This document shows, in pieces, positions 12,077 to 50,240 of a stretch of DNA of 64,000 nt; positions within the stretch are counted from its first letter, which is position 1; the number at the start of each line of letters is the position of its first letter. The position numbers and the translations under genes were made by a program. The notes beneath the pieces were generated by a model. It did no database searches. It saw nothing but the letters and a program-made list of their open reading frames with translations, and was not told where the DNA came from. Source of the stretch: Sedimentibacter sp. SX930 (GTDB taxonomy: Bacteria > Bacillota > Bacilli > Lactobacillales > Aerococcaceae); contig MUZD01000001.1 of assembly GCA_002155105.1 (NCBI GenBank), positions 62,001 to 126,000 of the forward strand, read 5' to 3'.

Positions 12077-12213
12077 AATTGTCGAATGCACTTCTTGCAT
12101 TCGACAATTACGTCTCATTCAGATGCAAAATTGTCGAATGGGCTCAAGTATTCGACAATTTCGTCCCGTCCGGCAATAAAATTATCGAATGCACTTCCTG
12201 CATTCGACAATTT
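12077..12213. repeat. Tandem hairpin array A (three units, 51-52 base period)
   Basis: Three inverted repeats start at 52- and 51-base intervals (12079, 12131, 12182, measured at the TTGTCG core). Unit 1 has a 14-bp perfect stem and a 5-base loop (12077-12090 with 12096-12109). Unit 2 has a 12-bp stem (12128-12139 with 12150-12161). Unit 3 has a 15-bp stem with one mismatch (12179-12193 with 12199-12213). The linkers differ. The array lies between convergent genes. Confidence 0.85.
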
Positions 12214-12270
12214 CGGTCCACCACCCACCAAGCTAAGGTCAACAGCACCAATAAAATCAGAAACGAGCAA

Positions 12271-12310
12271 AAAAACAGAGGCCATCTCATTTTACTTTGA
12301 GACGGCCTCT
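12271..12310 (-). terminator. Terminator of rlmN
   Basis: A 13-bp stem (12277-12289 with 12298-12310, one G-U pair on the minus strand) is followed on the minus strand by a T run. Confidence 0.8.
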
Positions 12311-12321
12311 GCTGAGGTCAA

Positions 12322-13386
12322 TTATTTGGTTGCTTTTTCCAGATGCTTGCTGCGCAGTTGGCCGCAGGCAGCATCGATGTCAGTGCCGTGTTCCTTGCGG
12401 ATTACGCAATTGATATTGTTCTTTTTGAGGATATCATAGAATGCCAAAATATCCTTTTTGGTGCTGCGCTCGTATTTGATGTGTTCGGCAACCGGATTGT
12501 AAGGGATCAGGTTCACGTAGGAAAGGTGACGCTTATCCTTCAACAAGGCAACCAATTCGTGCGCCTGCTCAGGTCTGTCGTTCACGCCAGAGATCATGAT
12601 GTATTCGAAAGTGATGCGGCGGTTTGTCTTTTCCAGATACTCGTCGATGGCGGACATGACTTCCTTCAGCGGGTGTTTGCGGTTGATGCGCATCATGCGG
12701 CTGCGGATTTCATCGTTCGGCGCGTGCAGGGACAAAGCCAAGTTGACTTGCAAGCCGTTTTCCGCGAATTCGCGGATTTTCGGAGCCAATCCGCTGGTGG
12801 AAACCGTGATATGACGAGCGCCGATTGCCAACCCTTTCGCGTGGTTGACGATGTTCAGGAAGGCGATGACATTGTCGTAATTGTCGAACGGTTCACCTAT
12901 GCCCATCACAACGATGTGGCTGACGCGTTCACCATTGCCTTTTTGATCCAAGTAGTGCTGGATCTGCATAATCTGTGCAACGATTTCGCCGGCAGTCAGA
13001 TCGCGTTGCTTGCGTTTCAGGCCGCTTGCGCAGAACGTGCAGCCGATATCGCAGCCGACTTGCGTCGTGACGCAGACGGACAATCCATAGTCCTGACGCA
13101 TCAGGACGGTTTCGATCATCAGTTTGTCTTCCAGTTGGAAGAGGTATTTAGTTGTGCCGTCCGCTGATTCTTGGACGACCACTTGATTCAGGGGCTGCAG
13201 CAGAAAGCTGTCGGAGAGAAGGGCAACCAAATCTTTAGACAGGTTCGTCATTTCCGAGAAATCGAGGACGCGTTTGATATATAGCCAGTCCCAGATCTGT
13301 TGGGCGCGGAATTTTTTCTGGCCTTGTTCCAACAACCAAGCTTCCAGCTGATCCAAAGTCAATCCATAAATAGAAGGTGTGTTCAT
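12322..13386 (-). CDS. rlmN: Dual-specificity 23S rRNA/tRNA adenine C2-methyltransferase RlmN
   Basis: A radical-SAM methyltransferase of 354 residues that methylates C2 of A2503 in 23S rRNA and A37 in some tRNAs. The iron-sulfur binding motif CDIGCTFC lies near residues 112-119. The downstream GIGEPFDN and SLHAPND segments match the family, and the C-terminal cysteine in [10 protein letters not shown] (about 345) is the methyl carrier. The ATG at 13386 has an AAAGGAAAG ribosome binding site. It is monocistronic, with a terminator at its 3' end. A tandem repeat array lies upstream between it and the NRAMP gene. Confidence 0.95.
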
Positions 13387-13507
13387 TATACTTTCCTTTC
13401 TTTACCGTTCAAATTTTCAATCCATATCATAACACATTTTTATGAAAATGGAATTACATCCTTAAAATAAGTGAAAAGGTGCAAAAAAGCACTTCAAATG
13501 CATGGAA

Positions 13508-13692
13508 TTCCCGGCGAAGGAATGCTCGCCGGGAAAACGCCACCGGAAGCGCCTGAAATTCCCGATGAAGGAATGCTCGCCGGGAAAACGCCACCGGAAG
13601 CGCCTGAAATTCCCAATGAAGGAATGCTCGCCGGGAAAACACCGCCGGAAGCGCCTGAAATTCCCGACGAAGGAAGTGTTTGCCGCAGTTGG
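13508..13692. repeat. Tandem repeat array B (four units, 51-base period)
   Basis: Repeat units begin at 13516, 13567, 13618 and 13669 (GAAGGAATGC phase), exactly 51 bases apart. Each of the first three forms a hairpin with stem CCCGGCGA/TCGCCGGG or a one-mismatch variant. The linkers (CACCGGAAGCGCC core) are nearly identical. The last unit is truncated. The array lies between the NRAMP gene and rlmN, both on the minus strand. Confidence 0.88.
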
Positions 13693-13700
13693 GTTGTCCG

Positions 13701-14978
13701 CTAAAATCCGAACAAATCCTTCAAGAACACTACGCCGATGCCGAACATCACCAACGTCGCAATGCCGCCGACCACATTTCCCAAACGGCGATTCGTATGG
13801 CTGCCCATCACCTTTTTATTGTTGCCGATGAAGAGGATCAGGAGCATCAGGGGCGGGGCCATCAAACCATTGATGGCTGCGGAATAATACAAAGCTCTCA
13901 TCGGATCGATCCCGACAAAATTGATCGTCAGTCCGATGAGCGTGGCGATGGTGATGACGCCATAGAAACCATGCGCCTCCTTCAGTTTCTTACCCAGACC
14001 CGTCTCCCAACCAAAAAATTCGGAAATGGCGTAGGATGAGGATCCGGCCAAAACAGGCACACCAAGCAGGCCTGTTCCGATGATGCCCAAAGCGAACAGC
14101 CAATAGGCGAAGTCTCCCACCAAGGGCCGAAGCGCTTGAGCGGCCTCCGAAGCAGAATTGATGGTGGTGATGCCGCTAAGGTGAAGGGTCCCGGCTGTCG
14201 TCAGCACAATCATGAAAGCAGTGACTGTCGTAAAAAACATCCCGACAATCGTATCAATCTTCATATCCTGGATATCCTTGACAAAGATGCGGGGTTTTCC
14301 GATGCCGATCCCTTTTATTTTATGCTCGACGATCTCTTTTTCCACTTCTTCATCCGCTTGCCAAAAAAACAGGTAAGGGGAAATCGTCGTCCCTAAAAAG
14401 GCCACCACATTAAGCGTGAATTCCCGGGAAGGGTAAAAGGTTGGGATGAGGGTATGCTGAAGGACAGCACCCCAATCCTGGCGGACCGTGAATGCCGTGA
14501 AAAAATAAGCGAACAGGGAAAGCGTCAAAAGCATCAGGAATTTCGAATAATTCTTGTAATCCATAAAAATTTCCAGGACCAAGGTCAGGGCAGTCATGAT
14601 CAGGATCCAAAAAATGAACGGCAAACCGAGCACCATCTGGGCTACCGCGGCCATCGCGCCCAAATCGGCACCGATGTTGATGGTATTGGCGATGAACAGA
14701 AGGGAGATTGCCGGATAGCTTACCCACTTAGGGTAGGATTGTTTCATGATCCCTGTCAGCCCTTTACCGGATACCATCCCGATCCGTCCGCACATTTCCT
14801 GGACGGCAATCGCAAAGATGCACGAAATCGGAGAAAGCCACAACAGATGAAGGCCGAACATGGCTCCCGTCTGCGAATAGGTGACGATTCCGGATGGATC
14901 ATCATCAGAGGCTCCAGTGATTACGCCAGGTCCAAATTTTTTGAGGAATTTTTTGGTCTTTTTGAGAATTTTACGCAT
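13701..14978 (-). CDS. NRAMP-related divalent metal transporter
   Basis: A membrane protein of about 425 residues with eleven or so hydrophobic segments and overall NRAMP similarity (GPGVITGASDDDPSGI in helix 1, GLPFIFWILIMTALTL, INFVGIDPMRALYYSAA). The canonical DPGN motif of helix 1 is replaced by DDDPSG. The helix-6 MPH motif region reads TISPYLFFWQA, so the metal-binding methionine is absent. This pattern resembles NRAMP-related magnesium or aluminium transporters more than manganese/iron NRAMPs (inference). The start at 14978 is favoured by GGGAG nine bases upstream. An in-frame GTG lies three codons earlier. Confidence 0.8.
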   Translation of the reverse strand: MRKILKKTKKFLKKFGPGVITGASDDDPSGIVTYSQTGAMFGLHLLWLSPISCIFAIAVQEMCGRIGMVSGKGLTGIMKQSYPKWVSYPAISLLFIANTINIGADLGAMAAVAQMVLGLPFIFWILIMTALTLVLEIFMDYKNYSKFLMLLTLSLFAYFFTAFTVRQDWGAVLQHTLIPTFYPSREFTLNVVAFLGTTISPYLFFWQADEEVEKEIVEHKIKGIGIGKPRIFVKDIQDMKIDTIVGMFFTTVTAFMIVLTTAGTLHLSGITTINSASEAAQALRPLVGDFAYWLFALGIIGTGLLGVPVLAGSSSYAISEFFGWETGLGKKLKEAHGFYGVITIATLIGLTINFVGIDPMRALYYSAAINGLMAPPLMLLILFIGNNKKVMGSHTNRRLGNVVGGIATLVMFGIGVVFLKDLFGF

Positions 14979-15219
14979 CTTTCTCACTCCCTTATTGGGT
15001 TGTGCATCTGCAACCAGAATTTCCGAAAAGAGTTGCGTTGGCCATCATCAGTGTCGGTCGGCAGTGGGATAAGGGAGCGGGTTTGCCCAGTTTTTTTTAT
15101 CTTCTTTGACATCATCATACCCACTATCCGCTAAGCTTGCAAGCACTTGCATCGCCATATGATATACTATTGATAGGAACGCAAATAACGAAAAATCCCG
15201 ACTGTCGAGGTGGACTAAA

Positions 15220-15597
15220 ATGGAAGAATCAGCTATAAAAATTGAAACGATCGATGCATACATCAGCCGCTATGATGAGGATATCCAGGCAATCCTGCAG
15301 GAATTACGCAGGCTGATAAAGGAAGAGGCACCTGATGCGACAGAAAAAATCAGTTATCAGATGCCGACCTTCTACCTGAACGGGAACCTGGTGCATTTTG
15401 CTGTGCAGAAAAATCATATCGGTTTCTATCCCGCACCAAGCGGCGTAGATGCTTTCAAGGAAGAATTGACGGAATACAAGACCTCAAAAGGCGCCATCCA
15501 ATTTCCACTGACGAAACCTATCCCATACGAGCTTGTGCGCCGGATTGTCCGCTTCCGGGTCGAAGAAGCGAAGCAAAATAAGAAACAGAGCAAATAA
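15220..15597 (+). CDS. DUF1801/YdhG-like protein
   Basis: A protein of 125 residues with the DUF1801 pattern: an N-terminal helical segment, then EKISYQMPTFYLNGNLVHFA, HIGFYPAPSGVDAF and KGAIQFPLTKPIPYELVRRIVRFR. Some relatives are annotated as frataxin-like iron chaperones, but this is weakly supported. A lysine-rich tail ends the protein. It is followed 48 bases later by a DUF1622 gene in the same direction, so the two may be cotranscribed. Confidence 0.8.
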   Translation: MEESAIKIETIDAYISRYDEDIQAILQELRRLIKEEAPDATEKISYQMPTFYLNGNLVHFAVQKNHIGFYPAPSGVDAFKEELTEYKTSKGAIQFPLTKPIPYELVRRIVRFRVEEAKQNKKQSK

Positions 15598-15645
15598 AGA
15601 ACGGATTCGTTACCAAATTTGAATATGGAAAAAGGAGGGACGTTC

Positions 15646-15981
15646 ATGAATTTGCATGCAGTCTTAACCGAAGTCATCCCAACACTTGCGAGCTTGATCG
15701 AGGGCATCGGCGTCCTGATCATCCTCTATGGATGCATCAAATCATTGTATCTGTTTTTTAAAGACAAGTTGAATTTGAGCAACAATCAACCGAAACTCGA
15801 ATTGGCCAAAGCGCTGGCGTTCAGCTTGGAGTTCAAACTGGCCGCGGAAATATTGAAGACAGTCATCATCCAGACGATTGATGAATTCATCGTCCTGTCT
15901 GCCATCGTCATCCTACGGGTTGTGCTGACGGTCGTCATCCATTGGGAAATCAAAAGCACCAATTCAGAAGTAGGGGAGTGA
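15646..15981 (+). CDS. DUF1622 family membrane protein
   Basis: A protein of 111 residues with three hydrophobic segments (about residues 10-35, 70-85 and 88-105). The motif LEFKLAAEILKTVI is the signature of the DUF1622 family, whose function is unknown. The ATG at 15646 is preceded by an excellent AGGAGGG. An in-frame ATG nine codons upstream is not. It is probably in one transcription unit with the DUF1801 gene. Confidence 0.82.
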   Translation: MNLHAVLTEVIPTLASLIEGIGVLIILYGCIKSLYLFFKDKLNLSNNQPKLELAKALAFSLEFKLAAEILKTVIIQTIDEFIVLSAIVILRVVLTVVIHWEIKSTNSEVGE

Positions 15982-16120
15982 CTTTTCCCCGCTCCTGGCA
16001 AATTAAATGAAAACGTTCTTTTTTCGCCCCGTTTTTGCCATCCTTTCGACATACTTCTTTCCTATACTGAACCTGTAGAAAAGAAGATCACGAAACATAC
16101 AAAAAAGGGAGCGGGTCAAA

Positions 16121-16663
16121 ATGAAAAAGTGGATGAACGGAATTGTGGGCGGGGCTTTGGCAGTCTTACTATTCAGCGGCACCGGCGTCATGGCATCCGA
16201 GGATGAAGAATTATATGGCGCTGCCGCGGTCAGCGAAGGCGAAACGTATACAATAGAAGAAATGTTGATTTACGCCATCCAGGATGAATATATGGCCGAA
16301 GCGTCCTACGAAGCGATCATGGAAGCATACGGAACGGTCAAACCATTCACAAGCATTGCCAGAGCGGAAGGCACACACATTTCATTGTTGTTGCCGCTGT
16401 TTGAAAGTTACGGATTTGAGGTTCCGGAAAATGAAGCGGAAGCCCGTATTGAATTGCCGGCTTCCTTGGCGGCAAGCTTTGAAAAAGGCGTGGCCGGCGA
16501 AATCGAAAACATCTCTGTTTATGGGCAATTCCTTGAGGACGAAGATTTGCCGGAAGATGTCAGAAGTGTCTTTGAACGTCTGATGGCAGCTTCCGAAAAC
16601 CATTTGGCAGCCTTTGAACGCGGCGTCGCCGGAAATCCTGATGGAGCCGGCAGGAAAAAATGA
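16121..16663 (+). CDS. Secreted DUF2202 ferritin-like protein
   Basis: 180 residues beginning with a signal peptide (MKKWMNG, hydrophobic core, probable cleavage after VMA near residue 25). The rest is a DUF2202 domain with helices bearing YAIQDEYMAEASYEAI, ARAEGTHISLLLPLFE and SENHLAAFERGV. These supply the Glu/His residues typical of ferritin-like di-iron bundles. Metal binding is an inference; the family has no firm function. GGGAGCGGG precedes the ATG as ribosome binding site. A strong terminator follows, then hairpin array C. Confidence 0.82.
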   Translation: MKKWMNGIVGGALAVLLFSGTGVMASEDEELYGAAAVSEGETYTIEEMLIYAIQDEYMAEASYEAIMEAYGTVKPFTSIARAEGTHISLLLPLFESYGFEVPENEAEARIELPASLAASFEKGVAGEIENISVYGQFLEDEDLPEDVRSVFERLMAASENHLAAFERGVAGNPDGAGRKK

Positions 16664-16676
16664 TACAAAACCATAG

Positions 16677-16718
16677 AACAAGCCACGCGCATAATCAACT
16701 TGCGCGTGGCTTGTTTTG
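16677..16718 (+). terminator. Terminator of DUF2202 gene
   Basis: A 15-bp perfect stem (16677-16691 with 16701-16715) ending in a T-rich run. Confidence 0.85.
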
Positions 16719-16736
16719 TATAAGTGTTTAAGCTGC

Positions 16737-16995
16737 CGGTTGTCCGATAACCGCGAAGAATCGGACAACCGGCACGCAAACGACCTGTAGCTTGTCCGAT
16801 AACCGCGAAGAATCGGACAACCGGCACGCAAACGACCTGTAGCTTGTCCGATAACCACGAAGAATCGGACAACCGGCACGCAAACGACCTGTAGCTTGTC
16901 CGATAACCGCGAAGAATCGGACAACCGGCACGCAAACGACCTGTAGCTTGTCCGATAACCGCGAAGAATCGGACAGCCAACGCGCAAGCGACCTG
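16737..16995. repeat. Tandem hairpin array C (five units, 52-base period)
   Basis: Units start at 16740, 16792, 16844, 16896 and 16948, exactly 52 bases apart. Each holds a hairpin with stem TTGTCCGAT and ATCGGACAA around a loop of about 11 bases, followed by a conserved linker (GGCACGCAAACGACCTG core). Units 1-4 are almost identical and unit 5 is degenerate. Because the spacers are identical it is not a CRISPR. It lies upstream of the molybdenum hydroxylase operon promoter. Confidence 0.9.
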
Positions 16996-17109
16996 CAGCT
17001 TATTTTTTTATGGTGGATAGTATAGCAGACCTGTATGTTAAAGTGTGCGGAAAAGATCAGAAAAAATGTAAAAACTGGCGGGAGACGCAAAAAGCACAAT
17101 GATCGGGTG

Positions 17110-17115
17110 TATAAT
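17110..17115 (+). promoter_or_regulatory. Putative -10 box of the molybdenum hydroxylase operon
   Basis: A perfect TATAAT about 70 bases before the first start codon; no good -35 is seen. A short dyad GGTTA-GAAG-TAACC (17124-17137) follows and could bind an operon-specific regulator. Confidence 0.5.
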
Positions 17116-17147
17116 GGGGATAAAGGTTAGAAGTAACCAGCTTCATA

Positions 17148-17162
17148 ATGTAAGCGTTATCT
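17148..17162 (+). promoter_or_regulatory. Catabolite-responsive element (cre, CcpA site)
   Basis: ATGTAAGCGTTATCT matches the cre consensus WTGNAANCGNWNNCW at every position. It lies between the putative promoter and the first gene, where CcpA binding represses. Confidence 0.75.
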
Positions 17163-17181
17163 TTATTGAGGGGATGATGTG

Positions 17182-17766
17182 ATGGGAATGGAAGGTGTTA
17201 TCTTGGCTGCTGGAAAGTCCTCCCGTATGGCGGGAAATTCAAAAATGACGATGGATTTGAACGGCAGGACCGTAATCGAAAGAAGCATCGATAGTCTGAG
17301 TCCGTTCTGCAGCCGCATCATCGTTGTGACGGGATTCCATTCCGAAGCAGTGAGGGAATCGGCCGGACACTGCCGGGATGTCATCTTTGTTCACAATCCG
17401 GACTGCGAAAAAGGCATGTTCTCCTCCTTACGGATGGGCTTGCAACGTACTGAAGCGGAGCGTGTCCTCATCCTGCCCGGCGACTGCCCTTTCATTACCC
17501 ATGAAGTCTGCGAGAAGCTGTTGGCGGTTAAAGGGGATATCGTTCTGCCTGCCTATCAGGGAAAGTGCGGGCACCCGGTCCTGTTGAACCGCCGGGCGAT
17601 TGAAGACCTGTTGGCGGATGATCGCTGCCAAAGCCTACAGGAATACCTAAGCGCAAACAAGGCGGAAATCATCGCGGTGGACCGTCCGGAGATTCTTTGG
17701 GACATCGACACGCCGGAGGATTATGCCAAATCAGTGGAGTATTTTCGAACGAAAGAAGTGAGGTGA
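17182..17766 (+). CDS. mocA: MocA-like molybdenum cofactor cytidylyltransferase
   Basis: A nucleotidyltransferase of about 194 residues. The N-terminal GVILAAGKSSRM is the NTP-binding loop, LILPGDCPFI (about residue 96) carries the metal-binding aspartate, and WDIDTPEDY is the conserved end of MocA/PucB proteins. Such enzymes convert molybdopterin to the cytosine dinucleotide form or otherwise mature the cofactor for the adjacent hydroxylase. It is the first gene of the operon, separated from the Mo subunit gene by four bases. Several start codons are possible; 17182 (ATG after GAGGGGATGATGTG) is preferred. Confidence 0.85.
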   Translation: MGMEGVILAAGKSSRMAGNSKMTMDLNGRTVIERSIDSLSPFCSRIIVVTGFHSEAVRESAGHCRDVIFVHNPDCEKGMFSSLRMGLQRTEAERVLILPGDCPFITHEVCEKLLAVKGDIVLPAYQGKCGHPVLLNRRAIEDLLADDRCQSLQEYLSANKAEIIAVDRPEILWDIDTPEDYAKSVEYFRTKEVR

Positions 17767-17770
17767 AGAG

Positions 17771-21823: not shown

Positions 21824-21833
21824 GGGTGGCGGC

Positions 21834-22352: not shown

Positions 22353-22371
22353 TAAAAACGAGGGGAATGTT
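22334..22371 (+). terminator. Possible terminator of the molybdenum hydroxylase operon
   Basis: A 13-bp stem with two G-U pairs (22334-22346 with 22359-22371) overlaps the stop codon. The following T tract is interrupted, so efficiency is uncertain. Confidence 0.5.
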
Positions 22372-22462
22372 GTTGTTATCAAATGATGAGGCTTGCGCCA
22401 CAGCTCTTTTCCGCTTAGAATGGAAGGACTGCAAAATAACGGAAAAGAAAGGATGAGGCTGG

Positions 22463-37533: not shown

Positions 37534-38751
37534 ATGGAAAATCACCCATCATTACATAAAAATATCTCGCTAGCTAAAAAATATGCCTTCATCCAATACT
37601 TTGGCATCACCTCGTTATGGCTCCTTTATCTGAGTTCATTCAAAGGGATGACCTTGGTGCAGATTGGCTTTCTGGAGTCTATCTTCCATATCACGAGTTT
37701 TGTCTTTGAAGTGCCCTCAGGTGCTTTGGCGGACCGTTTTGGCTACAAAAAAATCCTGTTGTTCGGGAAAGTGATGGCCATCATCAGCTCGATTGGGATG
37801 ATTTATGGTCAGAGTTTCTCTCATTTTGCGGTTGCGTTCGCGTTCTCAGCGCTTTCCTACAATTTCAACTCGGGGACCTACGAAGCGTTGATCTTCGAAA
37901 GCATGAAAGGATTGGACGAGGAAAGCGGCTATCTGGACAAGCTGGCCCACATCAATTTCCTGATCGAGATCAGTGCCCAAAGCGGCGTGATCCTTGCCGG
38001 GATTTTGGCTGACACTTATTTTCAAGCCGTGTATATGGTAAATATTGTGCTCTGCTTGCTGAATATGTTGCTGATATACCGCATGGTAGAACCAATCAAG
38101 CGACTGGCTCCACAATCGGATGAAACAGTCGGATTATCCAAAAAAGTGGGGCAGTCCTACACCCGGATTCTGGAGAATGCTTGGCAGTTGCTGAAACGGC
38201 ATAAAGAGCTTCGGGGCTGGATACTGTTTTTTGCTTTGCTGGACAGCTTTGCAGCGACTTACTATTTCTATTTCCAGAACTACCTGTCGGTGCTGGGATA
38301 TAACGGTAAAGCTACGAGCTTCTATCTGTTTGCGGCTGCTCTGTTCGGCATCTTTGGAGCAAAATTTTCTCCATCCATCGAGCAGAAACTACGCAAAAAC
38401 CGAATCCCTTATGTCTTCCCCGTAGTTGTATTATTGTCATTGCTGCTCTCGGCTTTGGGTAATCAGCTGCTGATTTTTGTTGGATTTGTACTTTCAATCA
38501 TTTTTTCCGCGGTGTCGCCGACAATCGCGAGCGCCTACATCAATCAGTTGATCCCTTCCGAAGAACGGGCGACGCTTTTGAGTGCGAACAGCATGGCCTA
38601 TAGCCTCTGCATGATAATCCTTTTTCCGGTGATCGGAGGCGTCATTGATCTATTGGATTTCCGGATCGCCTATTTGACGATGGGACTATCGATTATGGTT
38701 GTAGGTGGAACTTTCGCAGTAGTCGTTAAAAAACAATTTTACCGAAAATAA
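37534..38751 (+). CDS. MFS transporter (putative drug exporter) controlled by attenuation
   Basis: 405 residues with about twelve membrane helices. The loop 2-3 motif A appears as GALADRFGYKK (about residues 62-72), preceded by FEVPSG as in many drug:H+ antiporters. The ATG at 37534 has GAAGGGA as ribosome binding site, and longer upstream extensions run through the terminator and are rejected. The gene lies behind a leader peptide and terminator, which supports antibiotic-inducible expression (inference). The true substrate is not readable from sequence. Confidence 0.82.
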   Translation: MENHPSLHKNISLAKKYAFIQYFGITSLWLLYLSSFKGMTLVQIGFLESIFHITSFVFEVPSGALADRFGYKKILLFGKVMAIISSIGMIYGQSFSHFAVAFAFSALSYNFNSGTYEALIFESMKGLDEESGYLDKLAHINFLIEISAQSGVILAGILADTYFQAVYMVNIVLCLLNMLLIYRMVEPIKRLAPQSDETVGLSKKVGQSYTRILENAWQLLKRHKELRGWILFFALLDSFAATYYFYFQNYLSVLGYNGKATSFYLFAAALFGIFGAKFSPSIEQKLRKNRIPYVFPVVVLLSLLLSALGNQLLIFVGFVLSIIFSAVSPTIASAYINQLIPSEERATLLSANSMAYSLCMIILFPVIGGVIDLLDFRIAYLTMGLSIMVVGGTFAVVVKKQFYRK

Positions 38752-38776
38752 AGGGATTGAAAAATTGAAGAAGGAG

Positions 38777-38800
38777 GCTGTCTCTCGAGACAGCTTTTTT
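38777..38800 (+). terminator. Terminator of MFS gene
   Basis: An 8-bp stem GCTGTCTC/GAGACAGC with a 2-base loop, followed by six T. Confidence 0.8.
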
Positions 38801-38816
38801 GCATAGTAATGAGGCT

Positions 38817-38960
38817 GTGGTTGTCCGATTCATCGGTAATATCGGACAACCAGCACCGACGCCGAACAGTGGTTGTCCGATTCATCGGTAATATCGGACA
38901 ACGAGTGCCCAAGCCAAACATCGGTTGTCCGATTCAACAGTAATATCGGACATCTTCGGA
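38817..38960. repeat. Tandem hairpin array D (three units, 52-base period)
   Basis: Hairpins with stem GTTGTCCGAT/ATCGGACAAC begin at 38821, 38873 and 38925 (TTGTCCG phase), 52 bases apart. Units 1 and 2 have identical loops and unit 3 is degenerate at its 3' end. The stem is the same as in array C. Linkers differ in detail. It sits between convergent genes. Confidence 0.88.
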
Positions 38961-38982: not shown

Positions 38983-39501
38983 TCAAAGATACTCCTCCAA
39001 TACCGACCAAGCCTCCAGCTTTTCGGGCAGCGTTTTGACATGTTTGCCGCGCATGGGGCTGGTCGAAGGGAGCGGCAGGTAGACCAAGCCGGATTCCTCA
39101 TCCAGACCGAAGTGCTTTTTGTAGCTGCGGTAAGCTTTTCCGCCGTTGAAGGCGATAGCTTTTATCTGGGGATGTTCGCGTAAAAGGGTCTTCAAGTCGT
39201 TTGGATATTCTTCTTTGATGGCCGAATCGAGGCTGCCTTCCCGGTAACAGGAGTGAATGACATCCCAGAGGGCGACGTGATGCTTTTTCAGCAGCGATAG
39301 GCGGTCTTCGTAGGTCACCGGATCCTCTTTCTCTAGAAGAGCAAAAATGATTTCCCAGAAATGGTTCCTCGGGTTCCCGTAGTAGTGCTGTGCTTCCAGC
39401 GACTTCGCGCCGGGCATCGATCCCAGAATCAGAACCTTGGCATGCGGATCGATGACGGGTGCCATCGAGTAAAGTTTGTCGGATTGTTTCAGTCGGAACA
39501 C
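38983..39501 (-). CDS. DNA-deoxyinosine glycosylase (hypoxanthine-DNA glycosylase, UDG superfamily)
   Basis: 172 residues. VLILGSMPGAKSLEAQHYYGNPRNHFW (read in two parts, about residues 24-50) is the signature of the family-6 UDG-fold enzymes that excise hypoxanthine from DNA. LPSTSPMRG (about 147) is the C-terminal active-site loop, with Met where relatives often have Ala. The gene acts in repair of deaminated adenine. The start is a GTG at 39501 with GGAAAGGA almost adjacent. An ATG eleven codons in is an alternative without a visible ribosome binding site. Confidence 0.85.
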   Translation of the reverse strand: MFRLKQSDKLYSMAPVIDPHAKVLILGSMPGAKSLEAQHYYGNPRNHFWEIIFALLEKEDPVTYEDRLSLLKKHHVALWDVIHSCYREGSLDSAIKEEYPNDLKTLLREHPQIKAIAFNGGKAYRSYKKHFGLDEESGLVYLPLPSTSPMRGKHVKTLPEKLEAWSVLEEYL

Positions 39502-39590: not shown

Positions 39591-39619
39591 TTGACGGAAG
39601 GTCAGCGATGCGTTAAAAT
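39591..39619 (+). promoter_or_regulatory. Promoter of trp operon
   Basis: TTGACG (39591-39596), 17 bases, TAAAAT (39614-39619). Confidence 0.75.
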
Positions 39620-39629
39620 AATCCCAACA

Positions 39630-39929
39630 TTAAGAAATCGTTAGAAAAATCATTTCCATCTAATAAAACCGATAATCAAGAGAAGTACGCATCATACCTT
39701 GTTTCCAGAGAGTCGCCGCCAGTGAGAGTGCGATAGCGAAGGGGATGCCGAATGGACTTGAGAGGGTTGCCTTGAAAAGAGTAGGGGCAAACGGGGAACC
39801 TGGTCCGTTAACAGACAGGCACATATGTTGGTATGTGAACGAGTGGGCGATTATTATCGTCAATTTGGGTGGTATCGCAGGAGAATACAAGCTCTTGTCC
39901 CTTTAAAGGGGGGACAAGGGCTTTTTTTG
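39630..39929 (+). ncRNA. T-box leader, tryptophan specific
   Basis: It shows stem I with AGAGAGTCG and GTGAGAG, a specifier loop GAATGGAC placing TGG (Trp) at 39753-39755, and the T-box core TTGGGTGGTATCGCAG (39865-39880). The terminator (39891-39901 with 39911-39921, one G-U pair) is followed by a T run. Uncharged tRNA-Trp should promote readthrough into trpD. Confidence 0.9.
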
Positions 39930-39956
39930 TACACAAAAAATGATGAGGTGAATGAA

Positions 39957-43592: not shown

Positions 43593-44361
43593 AATCACAG
43601 CTGCCTTCAAGCACAAGGCATTCATCCCGTTCGTGACTGCGGGGGATCCAGACCTGGAAACCACGAAGGAACTGATCAGGGAAATCGTTGCGAACGGAGC
43701 GGATATCGTCGAAATCGGCATCCCGTTCTCTGATCCGGTTGCGGAAGGTCCTGCCATCCAAAAAGCGGATGAGCGGGCTTTGGCGAACGGCATCAATACG
43801 GACGATATTTTCCGGATGGTCGCTGAGTTGCGCACCGAAATCGATACACCTTTCGTCTTCATGACCTACATCAACCCAGTTTTCGTCTACGGCATCGATA
43901 AATTCATGGCGCGCTGCAAAGAGACCGGCGTCGACGGCGTCATCATCCCGGATGTTCCGTTTGAAGAGAAGGGCTTCATCCAGGAAGCTTGCCGGGACCA
44001 TGGCATCACCTACATTTCCATGGTGGCACCTTCTTCCGCTGAAAGGATCGCCATGATCGCCAAAGAAGCGGAAGGCTTCCTGTACGTCGTTTCTTCCTTA
44101 GGAGTCACCGGCGTGCGCAGCGACATCACGACTGATATCGGCAGCATGCTGGCCGAAATCCGCAAAATCAGCGATATCCCTTGCGCCATCGGCTTCGGGA
44201 TTTCCAACGCGCAACAAGCCAAAGCCATGAGCGAAGTCGGTGATGGCGTCATCATCGGTTCCGCAATCATCAACATCATGGAAAAATACGGAAAAGATTC
44301 GCCCAAACCGGTAGGTGCCTTCGTAGCGGAAATGGTGAAAGCCATCCGCGGTGGCAACTGA
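43585..44361 (+). CDS. trpA: Tryptophan synthase alpha subunit
   Basis: 258 residues. Catalytic Glu and Asp lie in [15 protein letters not shown] (about 42-56), and the phosphate-binding segments are PSSAERIA and [11 protein letters not shown] choose the ATG at 43585, which overlaps the end of trpB. It is the last gene of the trpDCFBA unit. Phosphoglycerate mutase follows 74 bases later without an obvious terminator. Confidence 0.95.
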
Positions 44362-44395
44362 AGTCCTTAAACGTGAACCGCACCGCTTGTAGCAG

Positions 44396-44401
44396 TATAA
44401 T
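44396..44401 (+). promoter_or_regulatory. Possible -10 box upstream of phosphoglycerate mutase
   Basis: A perfect TATAAT 35 bases before the gene, without a recognisable -35. The gene may be transcribed from here, from the trp operon, or both. Confidence 0.35.
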
Positions 44402-44435
44402 GAAAGAAAAATACAGGCGGAAAGTGGTGATGGTG

Positions 44436-45122
44436 ATGAGGAAAATAATTTTGATTCGTCATGGGGCAAGCGAGTGGAACTTGTTGAACCTGTTTACGGG
44501 CTGGACGGATGTCGACTTGAGTGAACAGGGTGTCACGGAAGCGAAAGAAGCCGGCCGGAAACTCAAGGAAGCCGGGATTGAATTTGATATGGCGTTCACA
44601 TCCGTACTGCAACGAGCGATCAAGACCTGCCATATTGTTCTGGATGAAATGGATCAATTATGGATACCGGAAGTGAAAAGCTGGCGACTCAATGAGCGGC
44701 ACTATGGCGATCTGCAAGGACTGAACAAACAGGAAACAGCCGAAAAATATGGAGAAGACCAGGTTCTGAAATGGCGGCGCTCCTATAACACGTTGCCGCC
44801 GCTGATGGATCCGGATAATCCGCTGTCGCCGGTCAAGGATCGCCGCTACGCCAACCTGCAGAAACGGATCATTCCGATGGGGGAAAATTTGGAGACCACT
44901 TTGGAACGTGTCATACCGTTTTGGGAAGATCAGATCGCTCCAGCGGTTCTGGACCGAAAAACGGTACTGGTGGCGGCCCACGGGAACTCCTTGCGGGCAT
45001 TGATCAAATATCTTGAAGAGATACCCGATGATGAGATTATGGCTTTGGAAATCCCTACCGGACAACCATTGGTCTATGAGTTGAATGATGACCTGACGAT
45101 CATCAGAAAATACTATCTTTAA
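44436..45122 (+). CDS. gpmA: 2,3-bisphosphoglycerate-dependent phosphoglycerate mutase
   Basis: 228 residues, the exact usual length. [25 protein letters not shown] carries the phospho-histidine (about residue 8). Other blocks are [24 protein letters not shown], and [16 protein letters not shown] with the second histidine. Interconverts 3- and 2-phosphoglycerate in glycolysis. The ATG at 44436 matches the family N terminus; a second ATG two codons earlier is possible. A strong terminator follows. Confidence 0.93.
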
Positions 45123-45125
45123 CAA

Positions 45126-45166
45126 AAAAGATGCGGCCGGGAATCGGAATCCCGGCCGCATCTTTT
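45126..45166. terminator. Bidirectional terminator after gpmA
   Basis: A 17-bp GC-rich perfect inverted repeat (45126-45142 with 45150-45166) with A and T flanks lies between convergent genes. Confidence 0.88.
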
Positions 45167-45172
45167 GTTGCA

Positions 45173-45949
45173 TCATTTTTCTTCAGCCATCAATTGAAAG
45201 TTGAAACGGACGTCACTGCTGGTCCCGTCCTGCAGGTAAGATCTTTCCACGAAAGTCACCCGATCGGAATGGTCAATGAGGATCAGTGTCGTGGAACGGG
45301 TGCCGTAGCGTTCCGTCCGGATGAAATTGGCGGAAACGGCACGCAAAATCGGCAAATCCAGCGGCAAATCAGGCAGTTGGTCATCCGACGGGGGCGTCCG
45401 GTCCGCCATGATGCGGAAGATGGCCTCTTCGTCCAACTCGGATGAAGAAGCCAGTTCGGCCATTGCCGCTTTGGTGAGGGTGACTTTTGGCCATGGTGTA
45501 TCGAGCGTGGCGTTGCTGACGGCATGGTTGCCTGTTTGAATGATGCTAATTTCGTCCAAAATATTGTTGTAATGATGGAGACTGTCTCTCGAACCGACAA
45601 TCAGATTGAAGCCGTTGTAGTCGGTCCGCTGTTGCCTGACCTGATCCAAATATTCGTTGGGGCCCATGCTGCCGGTCAGGTAATCCATCACCAGGTTGCC
45701 GCGGGACAGTTTTTGGTCGGATTCCTGGGTGGTCGTCAAATAACTATTGGTCACTGCAGCGATCCTTCCTTGTTTGGTGATCCCGAGCCAAGTGCCGCGG
45801 GCGCTCAAATCTTTCCCCGCCAACAAATCGGGATACTCCGGCCAGAAGTGCGCAGGCAAGGATGGGCGGTCATATTGCTCATCCCGATTGGCCACGAGAA
45901 TCAATTTGTAAGAAGCGTTTTGGCTGAGTTGCAACGAAATCAGACACAT
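45173..45949 (-). CDS. NRDE-motif (TANGO2-like) family protein
   Basis: 258 residues. It begins MCLISLQL, so removal of Met would expose an N-terminal cysteine as in Ntn-hydrolase folds. ILVANRDEQYDRPS contains the NRDE motif (about residues 20-24), followed by AGKDLSARGTWLGI and VTNS as in TANGO2 homologues. Eukaryotic homologues affect Golgi organisation and haem or lipid handling; the bacterial function is unknown. GGGGGA precedes the ATG at 45949. An in-frame extension upstream lacks a ribosome binding site. Confidence 0.85.
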   Translation of the reverse strand: MCLISLQLSQNASYKLILVANRDEQYDRPSLPAHFWPEYPDLLAGKDLSARGTWLGITKQGRIAAVTNSYLTTTQESDQKLSRGNLVMDYLTGSMGPNEYLDQVRQQRTDYNGFNLIVGSRDSLHHYNNILDEISIIQTGNHAVSNATLDTPWPKVTLTKAAMAELASSSELDEEAIFRIMADRTPPSDDQLPDLPLDLPILRAVSANFIRTERYGTRSTTLILIDHSDRVTFVERSYLQDGTSSDVRFNFQLMAEEK

Positions 45950-46095
45950 AGCTATTCCCCCAGTAAGATGTTGTTCTTTTGTTAAGTATAGCATGCGCAA
46001 CCTTCAAGGCTGAAATGAAAAAACCGCGTCGGGAAAGGCCTGCTGAGTGCAGCTCGACTGCTTGTCCCAAATTTTAAAACGTGCTGGATATGAGC

Positions 46096-46101
46096 TATAA
46101 T
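46096..46101 (+). promoter_or_regulatory. Putative -10 box of lipoprotein gene
   Basis: A perfect TATAAT 77 bases before the start codon, with only a weak -35 (TTTAAA at 46073-46078). Confidence 0.45.
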
Positions 46102-46177
46102 AAGGATGACAGTAACACCGCCGCGCCAATCGGAAATACAACAACAGGATCAACATTATTCGAAGGGGTTGTTTAGG

Positions 46178-46900
46178 ATGCTTAAGGATAGAAAAAAATA
46201 TTGGACAGTTTTGCTGGTCAGTCTTTTTCTGGCAAGTTGCAGCCAAACGCAGGAAACGTCTGAAGAAGAAAATTCATCTCAAGCAACAGCACAGAGCGGT
46301 TCGGCAGCCAGTACCGCGAGCAGCGAAACGGAAGCAACGTCGGCAGAATCCACTGAAGTCGGTGATCGTCTGGGCAAACTATCGAAAAGCTACATCGATA
46401 TCATGGGCAGCGGCAATTACTATATGGCTTTCCGCTCCACAACAACATATGAAGGCGAAGTGATGGAATCCGAGACAATGATGACCGTTTCAGGAGACCG
46501 GACCGCAATGCATTCTAAGTCCGCAGAGACCGACACCGTAATGGTGATGATGGACGGCAATATCTATATGATCGACCATGCCAGCAAAACGGTGATCGTA
46601 ATGCCCCAGACAACGGCCGAAGGGGATGAGACCCTCCCGGAAATACCGGAATCAAGCGAGCCGGTCGAAGTGGATGACATCGAATACATCGGCAGCGGTG
46701 AGGAAGACGGCTTGGTGTATGAGGAATATCGCACGGAGGGCGGTACACAAATCTTCTACTATTTTGATGGCGCCGACCTGAAGAAAATCAAGACGATCGA
46801 TGAATCATTTGAATCGGTCATGGAAATCCTCGAATTGTCCGATAACGTGTCGGAGGATGCTTTTGAAATACCAGCGGACTATCAGCAAGTGACTTACTAG
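46178..46900 (+). CDS. Putative surface lipoprotein, unknown function
   Basis: 240 residues. A basic start (MLKDRKKYW), a hydrophobic stretch and the lipobox LASC (about residue 19) identify a lipoprotein anchored on the outer face of the membrane. Next comes a Ser/Thr/Glu/Ala-rich linker of about 45 residues, then a beta-rich domain (YYMAFRSTTTYEGEVMES, GNIYMIDHASKTVIVMP, QIFYYFDGADLKKI). This resembles LppX/outer-membrane lipoprotein-sorting folds only in general. GAAGGGG lies upstream. The Ca/Na exchanger gene follows after 37 bases and may be cotranscribed. Confidence 0.75.
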   Translation: MLKDRKKYWTVLLVSLFLASCSQTQETSEEENSSQATAQSGSAASTASSETEATSAESTEVGDRLGKLSKSYIDIMGSGNYYMAFRSTTTYEGEVMESETMMTVSGDRTAMHSKSAETDTVMVMMDGNIYMIDHASKTVIVMPQTTAEGDETLPEIPESSEPVEVDDIEYIGSGEEDGLVYEEYRTEGGTQIFYYFDGADLKKIKTIDESFESVMEILELSDNVSEDAFEIPADYQQVTY

Positions 46901-46937
46901 ATGGAATGATAAAATACGCATGTAAAGGAGTGGGACA

Positions 46938-47933
46938 ATGGCACTGCTATTGGAACAGATGAACGGATATTTGTTGGTTGCAGTGCTTGTCCTCTGTATT
47001 TGGGTGCTGTCCAAGGCGACAGATATCCTGGTCGATGAAGCCGTTTCGTTGTCTTTGGAGTGGGGGATGTCCCAGCTTGTGATCGGCGCGACGATTGTTT
47101 CTTTGGGAACATCGTTGCCGGAACTGGCGGTATCTATCTCCTCATCCTTGAAGGGTAACGGCATTCTGGCTTTGGGGAATGTCATCGGTTCGACATTCGT
47201 GAACACCAGCTTCATTCTGGGAATCGGAGCGCTCTACGGAAGCATACCCGTCAATCGGAAAACGGCGCATAAACACACCGTTTTGTCGGGGCTTTCGCTT
47301 TTGTTGATCCTCTCCTCACTGCCGATTTTTCATGCGGATGGCCAAGGGAAGATACCGCAATGGATTGGCATTTTCTTTCTGATTTTGACCCCCGTTTACT
47401 TCTATTGGACGGTGCGGGAAGGGAAGCTGTCCGATCAAGAGGCTGTCATTGAAGAAGACAAGGAAAAAGGTCTCCCGATTCTGGTCAAATTGATTAAGTT
47501 GCTCATCAGTGCAGGCTTTGTGATTACGAGTGCCTCTGTATTGGTAAGTACAGTGGAAATCGGTGCTGCCCGGATTGGCATCCCTGATTCGGTCATCGCT
47601 TCCACAGTTGTGGCCTTCGGAACCGGACTGCCGGAAATAAGCACAACCATTGTTTCCGTAAAAAAAGGCTACGGCGCTTTGGCGATGGGGAACATCATGG
47701 GTTCCAACTTGTTGAATACTTTGTTCGTTCTTGGTGTGGCATTAGGATTGACACCGGGAGGAATTATCGTCAGTCCGGATTTCTATCAGATCCATTTTCC
47801 GGCTTTGGCTATTCTGCTGTCAGTTTTGGGATACTTTTCCTATAACAACAAACGCGATGTCATCAGCAGAAAAGAAGGGCGCATTTTGATACTGTTCTAT
47901 CTTGTGTATCTGGTATGGAACTATTTCTTATAG
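46938..47933 (+). CDS. CaCA-family calcium/sodium exchanger (YrbG-like)
   Basis: 331 residues with about ten membrane helices and the two inverted alpha-repeats of the family: GATIVSLGTSLPELAVS with GNVIGSTFVN in the first half (about residues 51-92), and STVVAFGTGLPEISTTI with GNIMGSNLLN in the second half (about 217-255). The Glu of each LPE motif binds the cation. Probably exports Ca2+ or another cation in exchange for Na+ or H+. GGAGTGG precedes the ATG. Confidence 0.88.
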   Translation: MALLLEQMNGYLLVAVLVLCIWVLSKATDILVDEAVSLSLEWGMSQLVIGATIVSLGTSLPELAVSISSSLKGNGILALGNVIGSTFVNTSFILGIGALYGSIPVNRKTAHKHTVLSGLSLLLILSSLPIFHADGQGKIPQWIGIFFLILTPVYFYWTVREGKLSDQEAVIEEDKEKGLPILVKLIKLLISAGFVITSASVLVSTVEIGAARIGIPDSVIASTVVAFGTGLPEISTTIVSVKKGYGALAMGNIMGSNLLNTLFVLGVALGLTPGGIIVSPDFYQIHFPALAILLSVLGYFSYNNKRDVISRKEGRILILFYLVYLVWNYFL

Positions 47934-47934
47934 C

Positions 47935-47973
47935 AAAAAGGTTCGTGACCCCACAAGGGCCACGAACCTTTTT
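47935..47973. terminator. Bidirectional terminator
   Basis: A 13-bp perfect inverted repeat (47935-47947 with 47961-47973) with A5/T5 flanks lies between convergent genes. Confidence 0.85.
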
Positions 47974-47976
47974 CTG

Positions 47977-49257
47977 TTATTCTTCTTCAGTATCGTTAAC
48001 GTTCTCGGGAGTATCCCGGGCAACATCCACAGTCGCGAAATCCTTGACGGGGGTGGAGCCGTTCACCAAGACAGCCTCTTCCTCGTCCAGCTCGAATGGA
48101 CCGGCCACTTCGCCAAAATAACGATTGTAACGCAGCTTGAATTTTTCGAGTACATGTTCGAGCAGGATCTTCAGCATCGCGAAGAGCGGCACACCTAAGA
48201 TCATTCCGATAAAGCCAAGCAGATTTCCCATGATCAGCAAAACGATGATGATCGTCAGCGGATGCATCTTCAAATTTCGGCCCATGATGCTAGGTTCGAT
48301 GATGTTGCCTTGGATGAATTGCGCCAAAGCCCAGACGACGGCCATTTTCAGGAGCATGGCCGGAGACGTGAAGGCAGCGACGAACAAGGCCGGGATGACC
48401 CCGATGGTCGCTCCGATGAAAGGGATGACCGCCGTAAAGGTAGCAATCAAGGCGAGAACGAATGCATATTCCAAACCGATGATCAAATAACCGACTATCA
48501 GCAAGGCACCCAGACTCAAGGCAACGAGCAGCTGGCCTTGAACATAGGAACCGACCTGAAGCGACATCTGTCTGGATATCTTTTCGATATCAGCGCGGAA
48601 AACAGGCGGGATGTTCTTCATGACAAAAGGTTGGAACTTTCCTTGGTCCTTCAGCATGAAGAAAAGGATGACCGGGAAAGTGACTGTTACGACCACTACG
48701 CTGGAAATGGTGGAAAAGATGTTCATGATTTTTTCGCTCGAGTTGCCGATCCAGGCCAGAATCATCTCAGGGATACTGCCCACTGTGCTGTCCAACCAAG
48801 TTTGCGCTTGCTCATAGTAGTCCTTGAAGGTACTGTTCGCGAGCAGATTGTCAAAATAGGCATTCATCTGTTCAATGTAGGTAGGAAATTCATTGACCAA
48901 ATTGGTGAGTTGGCTGGACAGAATAGGAACCAAAAGAACAAGCCCATAGACCAGCATCAAAATGAAGAGTACAAAGACGATAGAGGTCGCCATTCCCCGG
49001 TTGATTTTCCTTCTTTCAAGGAAGGTCACCATCGGATTGAATATATAATAGAAGACGATTGCTAAAATCACGGGTGCCACGATGGTCGAAAAAATGACCT
49101 GCAACGGTTTGAAAATGAATGAAATGGTATCCATCGTAAAGATGAGCACGCCGATCAGAATCAGGGTGGACAGGATATAGATGATTGTCTTGCCGCCCAA
49201 AAAGGAGATGAGGCGCGTATCTTCGGGTATTGTTATTTTCGTTTCTTTCTTTTGCAT
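47977..49257 (-). CDS. AI-2E family transporter (PerM/YdiK-like)
   Basis: 426 residues with about eight membrane helices. The middle region has an extracytoplasmic segment (LVNEFPTYIEQMNAYFDNLL), and the C-terminal part has LALIATFTAVIPFIGATIGVIPA (in parts) and GNIIEPSIMGRNLKMHPLTIII, all typical of the AI-2E/PF01594 family. Members include TqsA (autoinducer-2 export) and Na+/H+ antiporter-like proteins, so the substrate is open. It ends with an acidic tail of about 45 residues. GAAAGGA precedes the ATG. Confidence 0.88.
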   Translation of the reverse strand: MQKKETKITIPEDTRLISFLGGKTIIYILSTLILIGVLIFTMDTISFIFKPLQVIFSTIVAPVILAIVFYYIFNPMVTFLERRKINRGMATSIVFVLFILMLVYGLVLLVPILSSQLTNLVNEFPTYIEQMNAYFDNLLANSTFKDYYEQAQTWLDSTVGSIPEMILAWIGNSSEKIMNIFSTISSVVVVTVTFPVILFFMLKDQGKFQPFVMKNIPPVFRADIEKISRQMSLQVGSYVQGQLLVALSLGALLIVGYLIIGLEYAFVLALIATFTAVIPFIGATIGVIPALFVAAFTSPAMLLKMAVVWALAQFIQGNIIEPSIMGRNLKMHPLTIIIVLLIMGNLLGFIGMILGVPLFAMLKILLEHVLEKFKLRYNRYFGEVAGPFELDEEEAVLVNGSTPVKDFATVDVARDTPENVNDTEEE

Positions 49258-49470
49258 ATGCTGTCCTTTCTTACGCCGTAGCCGGATTTGGCCCGTATAG
49301 CGGCATAGCGGGTTTCTATTTTTAGTTTACCAGAGTTCCCTTTGAAAGCCATACTGCAAAGGTCCTATTTCCGGGAAATTCTGTCGTACGATTGCTCGTT
49401 TGAGGGGTCCCGGAATGAAATGTGTTAAAATGACAGAACAAAAAGCAACACCAGAGGAGGACGGCAACAA

Positions 49471-50076
49471 ATGAAATACAGCATCTATACACGGACCGGC
49501 GATAAAGGCAACACACGCATCGGAGGTGGGAAAGCTCTTCCGAAAAATGCCGAGAGGATCGAAGCTTTCGGCGCGCTCGATGGTCTGAATTCATGGTTCG
49601 GCCTTGTCCGCACGAAAAATGATTGTGGCGAGGACATCCAGGAGGACATGGCGCTCATCCAACAGTTCCTGTTCGATTGTTCCTCAGATCTGTCGATCCC
49701 TAAAGGGCACCGGGAGTACAAGCTCACCCAAGATCACATCGACTGGTTGGAGAAGAAAATCGATGGCTACAGCGAAGAACCAGAGGAGACCCAGTACTTC
49801 ATCATACCGGGCGGAACGGAACTGGCAAGCTGGTTCCACATTTTGCGGACGACGACCCGCGACGCGGAACGCCGGATCGTCACCTTCATGGAGCAAGAGC
49901 CGGAAGAAGTGAATCCGTTCGTCCTGAAGTTCATCAACCGGCTTTCTGACTATCTGTTTGTCGTGGCCCGGGTCGCCAATGCCCGCAAAGGCGTTCCTGA
50001 CCTGCCGTACGAGCGCAGTGAAAAAGTGTTCCGCATTTCCGGAGATAAGGACAGTTCCAAGGCGAAACCGGAATAA
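49471..50076 (+). CDS. PduO-type ATP:cob(I)alamin adenosyltransferase
   Basis: 201 residues. YTRTGDKGNTRIGGG (about residues 5-19) is the ATP phosphate loop. RTTTRDAERRIV (about 129-140) and NRLSDYLFVVARVAN (about 157-171) are the conserved corrinoid/ATP blocks. It makes adenosylcobalamin, needed by B12-dependent diol or glycerol dehydratases or by corrinoid salvage. No other cobalamin gene is nearby. GGAGGA precedes the ATG. Confidence 0.92.
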   Translation: MKYSIYTRTGDKGNTRIGGGKALPKNAERIEAFGALDGLNSWFGLVRTKNDCGEDIQEDMALIQQFLFDCSSDLSIPKGHREYKLTQDHIDWLEKKIDGYSEEPEETQYFIIPGGTELASWFHILRTTTRDAERRIVTFMEQEPEEVNPFVLKFINRLSDYLFVVARVANARKGVPDLPYERSEKVFRISGDKDSSKAKPE

Positions 50077-50100
50077 TAGAGGAAGCCAAGAATCGGGTTC

Positions 50101-50240
50101 TCCTCCGGTGAGGAGAACTTACGCCGGAGAAGAGAATCCCACCAAAATGTCACCTCCGGTCCACGCGGCTTCGCCGGAGTTCGGCATTCTGGAAATAAGT
50201 CTCCTCCGGCCAACAGATTGCCCGCCGGAGCTGAGCAGCT
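50101..50240. repeat. Tandem hairpin array E (three units, about 51-base period)
   Basis: Hairpins with stem CTCCGG(T/C)G-type left arms at 50103, 50154 and 50204, each closed by CGCCGGAG, are 51 and 50 bases apart. Loops differ in sequence and length. Linkers are not identical. The array sits between the convergent adenosyltransferase and NAD(P)HX repair genes. Confidence 0.82.

What the first reader, a model, noticed from the sequence alone, without database searches (positions are those of the whole stretch)
12077..50240. A family of intergenic hairpin arrays sharing a 50-52 base period but not a stem sequence
Five arrays (12077-12213, 13508-13692, 16737-16995, 38817-38960, 50101-50240) repeat a hairpin three to five times. 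Every measured unit-to-unit distance is 50, 51 or 52 bases. Stem sequences fall into at least three types: TTGTC(C)GA(A/T), CCCGGCGA and CTCCGGYG. The constant spacing with variable sequence suggests selection on geometry: 52 bases is about five turns of B-DNA, so successive dyads would face the same side. All arrays are intergenic, and three of five lie between convergent genes. Possible roles: phased binding sites for a nucleoid or topoisomerase partner (compare BIME), RNA 3' end structures, or a self-expanding element.
Basis: partly seen in the sequence, partly recalled or inferred. Interest (0 to 1): 0.78.

Follow-up and report, generated by a model that had tools for sequence, protein, structure and literature searches.

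The report
Evenly spaced hairpin arrays between genes
This bacterium and some of its relatives carry many rows of DNA palindromes between genes, whose sequences differ from row to row but whose spacing is held almost to the base, mostly near whole turns of the DNA helix, which suggests that something reads them by geometry.

Summary
The genome is a Trichococcus (3.13 Mb). In 704 kb sampled without regard to arrays, 24 of 27 intergenic tandem repeats (periods 12-160) have period 50-52, with at least seven stem sequences. Contexts: convergent 12, tandem 9, divergent 0; divergent gaps are 28% of background.

Adjacent units of the main class differ at 32% of linker but 4% of arm positions, yet 75 of 80 spacings are exactly 52; the local indel rate predicts about 76 length changes, 5 are seen. 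A same-species strain differs by whole units at two arrays.

Four other genera of the family have arrays with other stems, spaced mainly 31, 40-43, 51-52 and 62 bases, near 3, 4, 5 and 6 turns. Of 179 adjacent pairs none shifts by 2-20 bases. Exceptions exist: 38 and 68-69 in one class.

Best explanation: BIME-like DNA elements whose dyads must keep a fixed, probably rotationally phased distance for a protein complex. Protein and function are not shown. RAYT, terminator, RNA and SbcCD-loss explanations were tested and are disfavoured.

The parts
12077..12213 (.). Array A1: three hairpins, arms TTGTCGAAT (one TTATCGAAT), dyads 51.5 apart, between convergent genes 11716-12054 (+) and rlmN 12322-13386 (-)
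13506..13675 (.). Array A2: TTCCCGGCGA hairpin units 51 apart, three recognisable and a decayed fourth; just downstream of the Nramp-like gene 13701-14978 (-)
16740..16976 (.). Array A3: five TTGTCCGAT-11-ATCGGACAA hairpins (type I) exactly 52 apart, between tandem genes
38821..38953 (.). Array A4: three type I hairpins 52 apart, between convergent genes 37534-38751 (+) and 38983-39465 (-)
50103..50230 (.). Array A5: three CTCCGG..CCGGAG hairpins 50.5 apart with unrelated linkers, between convergent genes 49471-50076 (+) and 50370-51917 (-); related copies are dispersed in other Trichococcus
12270..12313 (-). Terminator-like hairpin with T run after rlmN, between the gene and A1
   Evidence: sequence; scan
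16677..16720 (+). Terminator-like hairpin after gene 16121-16663, between the gene and A3
38776..38802 (+). Terminator-like hairpin with T run between gene 37534-38751 and A4
50308..50352 (-). Terminator-like hairpin between A5 and gene 50370-51917, read by eye

Best explanation
The arrays are a lineage-specific, BIME-like class of intergenic DNA element that works through geometry. Each array is a row of inverted arms in which loop length, linker length and so dyad-to-dyad distance are held fixed, mostly near a whole number of helical turns: five in Trichococcus, mainly four and also three, five and six in other genera of the family. SHOWN: arrays of many stem sequences share the spacing; spacing resists indels while linkers diverge; in this genome arrays sit at gene 3' ends and between convergent genes; copy number changes by whole units. 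INFERRED: adjacent dyads must lie on the same face of the duplex because one protein complex, or neighbouring protomers, touches several of them at once. Because stems differ between arrays, the common reader is more likely a shape- or wrap-sensitive factor (a topoisomerase or nucleoid protein, as gyrase on E. coli BIME-2) than one sequence-specific regulator. Likely use, not shown: a topological or transcriptional buffer between converging genes.
For: 24 of 27 unselected intergenic tandem repeats have period 50-52. Type I, duplicates removed: 75 of 80 adjacent spacings are 52, with mismatches 4.3% in arms, 15.5% in loops, 32.3% in linkers; ordinary intergenic DNA has 34 indels per 307 substitutions, so about 76 length changes were expected and 5 seen. 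Convergent 12, tandem 9, divergent 0 against 52/163/84 background gaps. Four other genera: main spacings 31, 40-43, 51-52, 62 with other stems; 154 of 179 adjacent pairs at the family mode and none shifted by 2-20 bases at 31.8% divergence outside the arms. Steps of 10 and 22 bases inside single stem families. Rung test p = 0.0009 on four rungs. Same-species strain differs by 102 and 104 bases at A2 and A4. At A1, L027 has arms TTGCCGAAT and TTCTCGAAT with exact partners.
Against: The CTCCGG class has spacings of 38 (9) and 68-69 (6), with 27 at 87-90 that read as 38 plus 51; with 38 and 68.5 as extra rungs p rises to 0.10. G059's commonest spacing is 43 (4.13 turns). Single off-ladder spacings of 20, 57, 60.5, 61 and 67.5 occur, mostly from six-base arms. 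One Trichococcus array has period 73. In G059, 3 of 14 arrays are divergent and 1 convergent. Type I arms are conserved in sequence, with 2 base-paired changes among 51 changed pairs, which fits a sequence-specific reader as well. An E. coli BIME array has period 113, 10.8 turns. No protein was identified. Arrays within a genome share history, so stem classes are not fully independent.
Confidence: 0.42

Rival explanations
1. Selfish or mechanically expanding palindromes: a replication or recombination process (slippage, hairpin-templated repair, or looping-out that favours whole turns) makes and homogenises the arrays. Fixed spacing is a by-product of how units are copied, and 3'-end location only reflects where insertions do no harm.
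For: Copy number changes quickly by whole units; loops and linkers are alike within arrays and different between arrays; arms kept as partners could come from templated repair; arrays avoid divergent gaps, where promoters lie.
Against: Linkers that have diverged by a third keep their length; arms are conserved far more than linkers; several unrelated stems in one genome share one period. No RAYT-like gene with flanking hairpins.
Confidence: 0.33
2. Arrays of operators for sequence-specific DNA-binding proteins, one per stem class, inherited from one 52-bp ancestor in Trichococcus.
For: Type I arms are conserved at 96% across the genus while linkers vary; arms occur as inverted pairs, 137 of 153.
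Against: About 15 stem classes in G036 alone would need as many factors; the location is at 3' ends, not at promoters.
Confidence: 0.13
3. RNA elements: hairpins at 3' ends of transcripts that terminate, stabilise or process RNA.
For: 3'-end location, stable stems, matched arm changes at A1. REPs of Proteobacteria are argued to act partly as RNA (PMC3733652, passages).
Against: A T-rich tail follows 1 of 87 distinct type I units. A terminator stands between gene and array at A1, A3, A4 and A5. Type I loops are sense in 4 and antisense in 4 arrays between tandem genes. G-T against A-C mismatches 8 to 5. No Rfam match at the arrays at gathering scores. RNA gives no reason for spacings near 31, 41, 52, 62. 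The terminator scan is insensitive: 11 of 45 array-facing genes against 40 of 199 control genes.
Confidence: 0.1

Closest known systems
REP / BIME elements of Proteobacteria (BIME-2 in E. coli)
   Same: Intergenic palindromes of similar size, often in rows, mostly between convergent and co-directional genes; BIME-2 is reported to bind DNA gyrase (PMC2817692 and PMC3733652, passages).
   Different: No GTAG or CGTC tag, no RAYT, units head to tail instead of alternating, many stem sequences per genome, spacing nearly invariant. In 200 kb of E. coli K-12 the one tandem BIME array found has period 113.
BOX elements of Streptococcus pneumoniae
   Same: Intergenic element of a Lactobacillales species with a variable number of tandem inner modules that can fold (PMC3049150, passages).
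   Different: BOX is one sequence family with boxA and boxC ends; these arrays have no common end modules that I saw and many stem sequences. No BOX model was run here.
CRISPR arrays
   Same: Palindromic repeat alternating with a spacer of fixed length.
   Different: Linkers of neighbouring units are related copies, not unique spacers; many small dispersed arrays; stems differ between arrays.

Membership tests
REP/BIME | GTAG or CGTC tag beside the palindrome | tested here: not met
   Type I: GTAG in 9 and CGTC in 2 of 87 distinct units, about 4.6 expected by chance for one tag
REP/BIME | Associated RAYT transposase flanked by the palindromes | tested here: not met
   Y1_Tnp search of the own genome: 3 matches at two places, both beside a tnpB-like gene (my reading); no flanking type I or CTCCGG pair; a period-51 array lies about 1 kb from the second place
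REP/BIME | Neighbouring units in alternating orientation | tested here: not met
   Loop sequence has one orientation along each type I array listed
REP/BIME | Intergenic, downstream of genes, rare between divergent genes | tested here: met
   12 convergent, 9 tandem, 0 divergent in the own genome; G059 does not follow
REP/BIME | Binds gyrase (BIME-2) | not testable with these tools
   needs experiment
BOX | boxA-(boxB)n-boxC order | not tested
   no BOX model run; only passages of PMC3049150 read
Intrinsic terminator | T-rich tract directly after the stem | tested here: not met
   1 of 87 distinct type I units; other classes not counted
CRISPR | Identical repeats with unique spacers | tested here: not met
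   linkers of neighbours are 68% identical on average
Rfam families | Match at gathering score | tested here: not met
   only a T-box leader at 39663-39905 in the window

The most novel reading that the evidence does not exclude
A family-wide system of intergenic DNA arrays in which the conserved, heritable feature is spacing in whole helical turns (3, 4, 5 or 6) and the sequence is almost free: a geometry-defined element read by one conserved DNA-wrapping or bridging machine, with different genera settled on different rungs of the same ladder.
Probability: 0.28. Interest if true: 0.9.

Novelty: new variant of a known kind. Interest (0 to 1): 0.72.

Why it matters
The intergenic palindrome families I could compare with (REP, BOX) are defined by sequence. 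Here many unrelated stems in one genome keep one spacing against drift, and related genera keep other spacings near whole helical turns. If confirmed this gives a natural experiment for how DNA topology or a nucleoid protein selects intergenic sequence, and it makes a testable question of whether BIME-like repeats elsewhere are also read by geometry.

Tried and rejected
Chance: rejected by shuffles, spacing counts and 1.0 Mb of other bacteria. RAYT-driven REP: see membership test. Loss of SbcCD: SbcD over the curated cut-off is found in the own genome and 11 of the 12 other Trichococcus genomes (not in G070, 51% complete); G036, G024, G048 and G059 have only weak hits, but so do G001, G034 and G035, where 40 kb each showed no arrays. 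DNA-uptake word: 16 of 153 arms stand without a partner, 13 of them in genes, about 6.5 expected. Phage or plasmid origin: 4 viral contigs with the type I pattern once each and no tandem hairpin array in the fetched parts; no plasmid match for one G036 cluster. Phasing between neighbouring arrays of different stem: scattered and dependent on the choice of dyad, not used. Coding repeats: 52, 41, 40, 31 and 62 are not multiples of three. First terminator scan was too strict; one search replaced it and is still insensitive.

Dropped or set aside: tandem repeats without hairpins (L163 periods 60-61, L202 period 48); low-complexity repeats under 25 b; a two-copy period-51 hairpin pair in G052, not used in the tests; pairs 75 b or more apart. 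One search counts some arrays in both registers; tries to count each once and misses the ten-base steps of the TTATACG family, which I read from the arm positions printed in the same call. The values of the phase tests were entered by hand; one G036 stem appears at two rungs. One search counted two arrays twice through overlapping loci; one search replaces it for spacings and mismatch rates, and the orientation and pair counts were made on distinct units.
Full report
WHAT IS THERE. The five arrays are real. The window is positions 62001-126000 of contig 1 of a 3.13-Mb, 37-contig genome. Its rlmN protein is 98-99% identical over its whole length to those of eight other Trichococcus (L021-L028), so the genus is Trichococcus. 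The TTGTCCGAT-11-ATCGGACAA hairpin of A3 and A4 (type I) occurs 52 times in the genome, with none for the reversed control pattern; many of the listed places stand exactly 52 apart. It occurs in 10 of 13 Trichococcus genomes and 0 of 63 other genomes of the family. A draw of 246 genomes of the order found it in 3, all Trichococcus.

PERIOD. In 464 kb of the genome all 49 pairs of similar hairpins within 250 bases are separated by one to four times 51-52 bases. A search for tandem repeats of period 12-160 found 27 intergenic ones in 704 kb of contig 1 taken without regard to arrays; 24 have period 50-52. With eight stretches chosen around type I hits it is 33 of 36. Stems include TTGTCCGAT, TTGTCGAAT, TTCCCGGCGA, CTCCGG, AAGATGAAT, TTCCCGAAT, CCCGCC and ACCATGGAT.

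PLACE. Of 21 unselected arrays with both neighbours called, 12 are convergent, 9 tandem and 0 divergent; 3 more lie at stretch ends. Gaps of 150 bases or more in the whole sample are 52 convergent, 163 tandem and 84 divergent (Fisher p = 1e-4 and 0.002). Genes were called with my own codon-usage script, which can miss genes. In the window a terminator stands between gene and array at A1, A3, A4 and, by eye, A5, so these arrays probably lie outside the main transcripts.

SPACING IS HELD WHILE SEQUENCE DRIFTS. In the held Trichococcus loci, duplicates removed, there are 116 type I units with 80 adjacent spacings under 130: 52 in 75, 51 in 4, 53 in 1. At 52, neighbours differ at 4.3% of arm, 15.5% of loop and 32.3% of linker positions. 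Arms were found with at most three mismatches per unit, so the arm figure is somewhat low. Ordinary intergenic DNA between the window and a same-species strain shows 34 indels and 307 substitutions in 25 regions, 10.6 kb. At that ratio the 685 loop and linker differences would bring about 76 length changes; 5 are seen. The control is between strains, the test between neighbouring copies, which is a weakness. A5 keeps 50.5-base spacing with unrelated linkers.

CHANGE IN TIME. Against the same-species genome G068 (about 95.6% identical where aligned), the window has three units against none at A1 (gap 267 against 112), is 102 bases longer at A2, has five units against four at A3 (where G068 also has unrelated extra DNA), is 104 bases shorter at A4 (three units against five), and is equal to within one base at A5. 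In other species the arrays are present, absent or reduced. At the A1 site L027 carries arms TTGCCGAAT and TTCTCGAAT with exact partners and TTCCCGAAT with one G-T pair.

OTHER GENERA. Stretches of up to 20 kb from 20 other genomes of the family (5 of them under 5 kb) showed hairpin arrays in four genera, G024, G036, G048 and G059; more sequence of these and others was then taken. G036: of 39 intergenic tandem repeats of period 25 or more in 380 kb, 32 have period 40-42, 4 have 31, and one each 51, 62 and 101, with about 15 stem classes. Main dyad spacings: G036 31, 40-42, 51-52, 62; G024 40-41, 51-52; G048 41; G059 41-43; single values of 20, 57, 60.5, 61 and 67.5 and sums of units also occur. 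In 179 adjacent pairs with 31.8% mismatches outside and 9.7% inside the arms, 154 spacings equal the family mode, 10 differ by one base or less, 13 by 22 or 31, one by 41 and one by 26.5. Steps inside one stem family: GTATAAC..TTATACG hairpins of constant size stand 41 or 51 apart, the linker longer by ten; TGCCGGA arrays mostly alternate 40 and 62. Stretches of 20 other genomes of the order (364 kb) showed no such ladder. Context in relatives: G036 convergent 15, tandem 18, divergent 1, edge 10, against gaps 10/71/19; G059 convergent 1, tandem 10, divergent 3, so G059 does not share the convergent excess.

IS IT THE HELIX? 'Five turns' was proposed before these genera were seen. With 10.4 bases per turn fixed from Trichococcus, the other genera's distinct rungs (31, 41, 51, 62) give p = 0.0009, and one value per genus and rung (eight) p = 5e-6. 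Against this, the CTCCGG class has 38 (9) and 68-69 (6) spacings, and 27 at 87-90 that read as 38 plus 51 with a missed hairpin, beside 153 at 49-52. In G065 these are joints of a four-hairpin, 189-base higher-order repeat. With 38 and 68.5 as two more rungs p is 0.10. Fixed spacing is strongly supported; rotational phasing is supported but not proven.

HOW IT MAY WORK. Indel avoidance at constant geometry with free linkers is what a DNA-bound complex touching successive dyads would impose. Because stems differ, a wrapping or shape-reading factor is more plausible than one sequence-specific protein, though type I arms are conserved in sequence too. Gyrase on E. coli BIME-2 is the obvious precedent (PMC2817692, passage). 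This step is inference; I found no protein.

WHAT IT IS NOT. Not REP/BIME by tag, RAYT or alternating orientation; not CRISPR; not intrinsic terminators; no Rfam family at gathering scores (see membership test). Not explained by loss of SbcD, which Trichococcus has.

NOVELTY. The Trichococcus genome paper PMC6950789 has no occurrence of 'repeat', 'palindrom' or 'intergenic' in its main text. Nine searches of the open library, judged by their listings, showed no paper that describes such arrays in this family. Most subscription journals are not held, so this is weak evidence of absence. Read: PMC3733652, abstract, one section and passages; PMC2817692, PMC3049150 and PMC6950789, passages only.

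Noticed in passing
L144-L150 (stretches of G067, G065, G068, G071): Copies of the A5-type three-hairpin stretch are dense in gene-variable regions (PTS operons, NERD proteins, a TOTE conflict primase-helicase, an IS3-like transposase), in four of the loci in one orientation opposite to most genes; L146 does not follow.
   Followed up: partly
L145:3099-4250: Bacterial higher-order repeat: four different CTCCGG hairpins repeated as a block of about 189 bases, six blocks in a row.
   Followed up: partly
L239:12573-14554, L241, L196 (G036): A repeat GTAAGTGGGAAGTGA, in both orientations, stands at or near many array borders; 43 hits at up to 3 mismatches in 380 kb, possibly a palindromic or mobile end.
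   Followed up: partly
G061 (contig length equals T. collinsii DSM 14526) and G065: No exact type I hairpin in these two near-complete genomes against 113 in G067 (contig length equals T. patagoniensis DSM 18806): abundance varies strongly within the genus.
   Followed up: no
window 39663-39905: T-box leader upstream of the gene called at 39927.
   Followed up: no
L188:18877-19063 (G068): A tandem repeat of period 73 between tandem genes, outside the 50-52 class.
   Followed up: no
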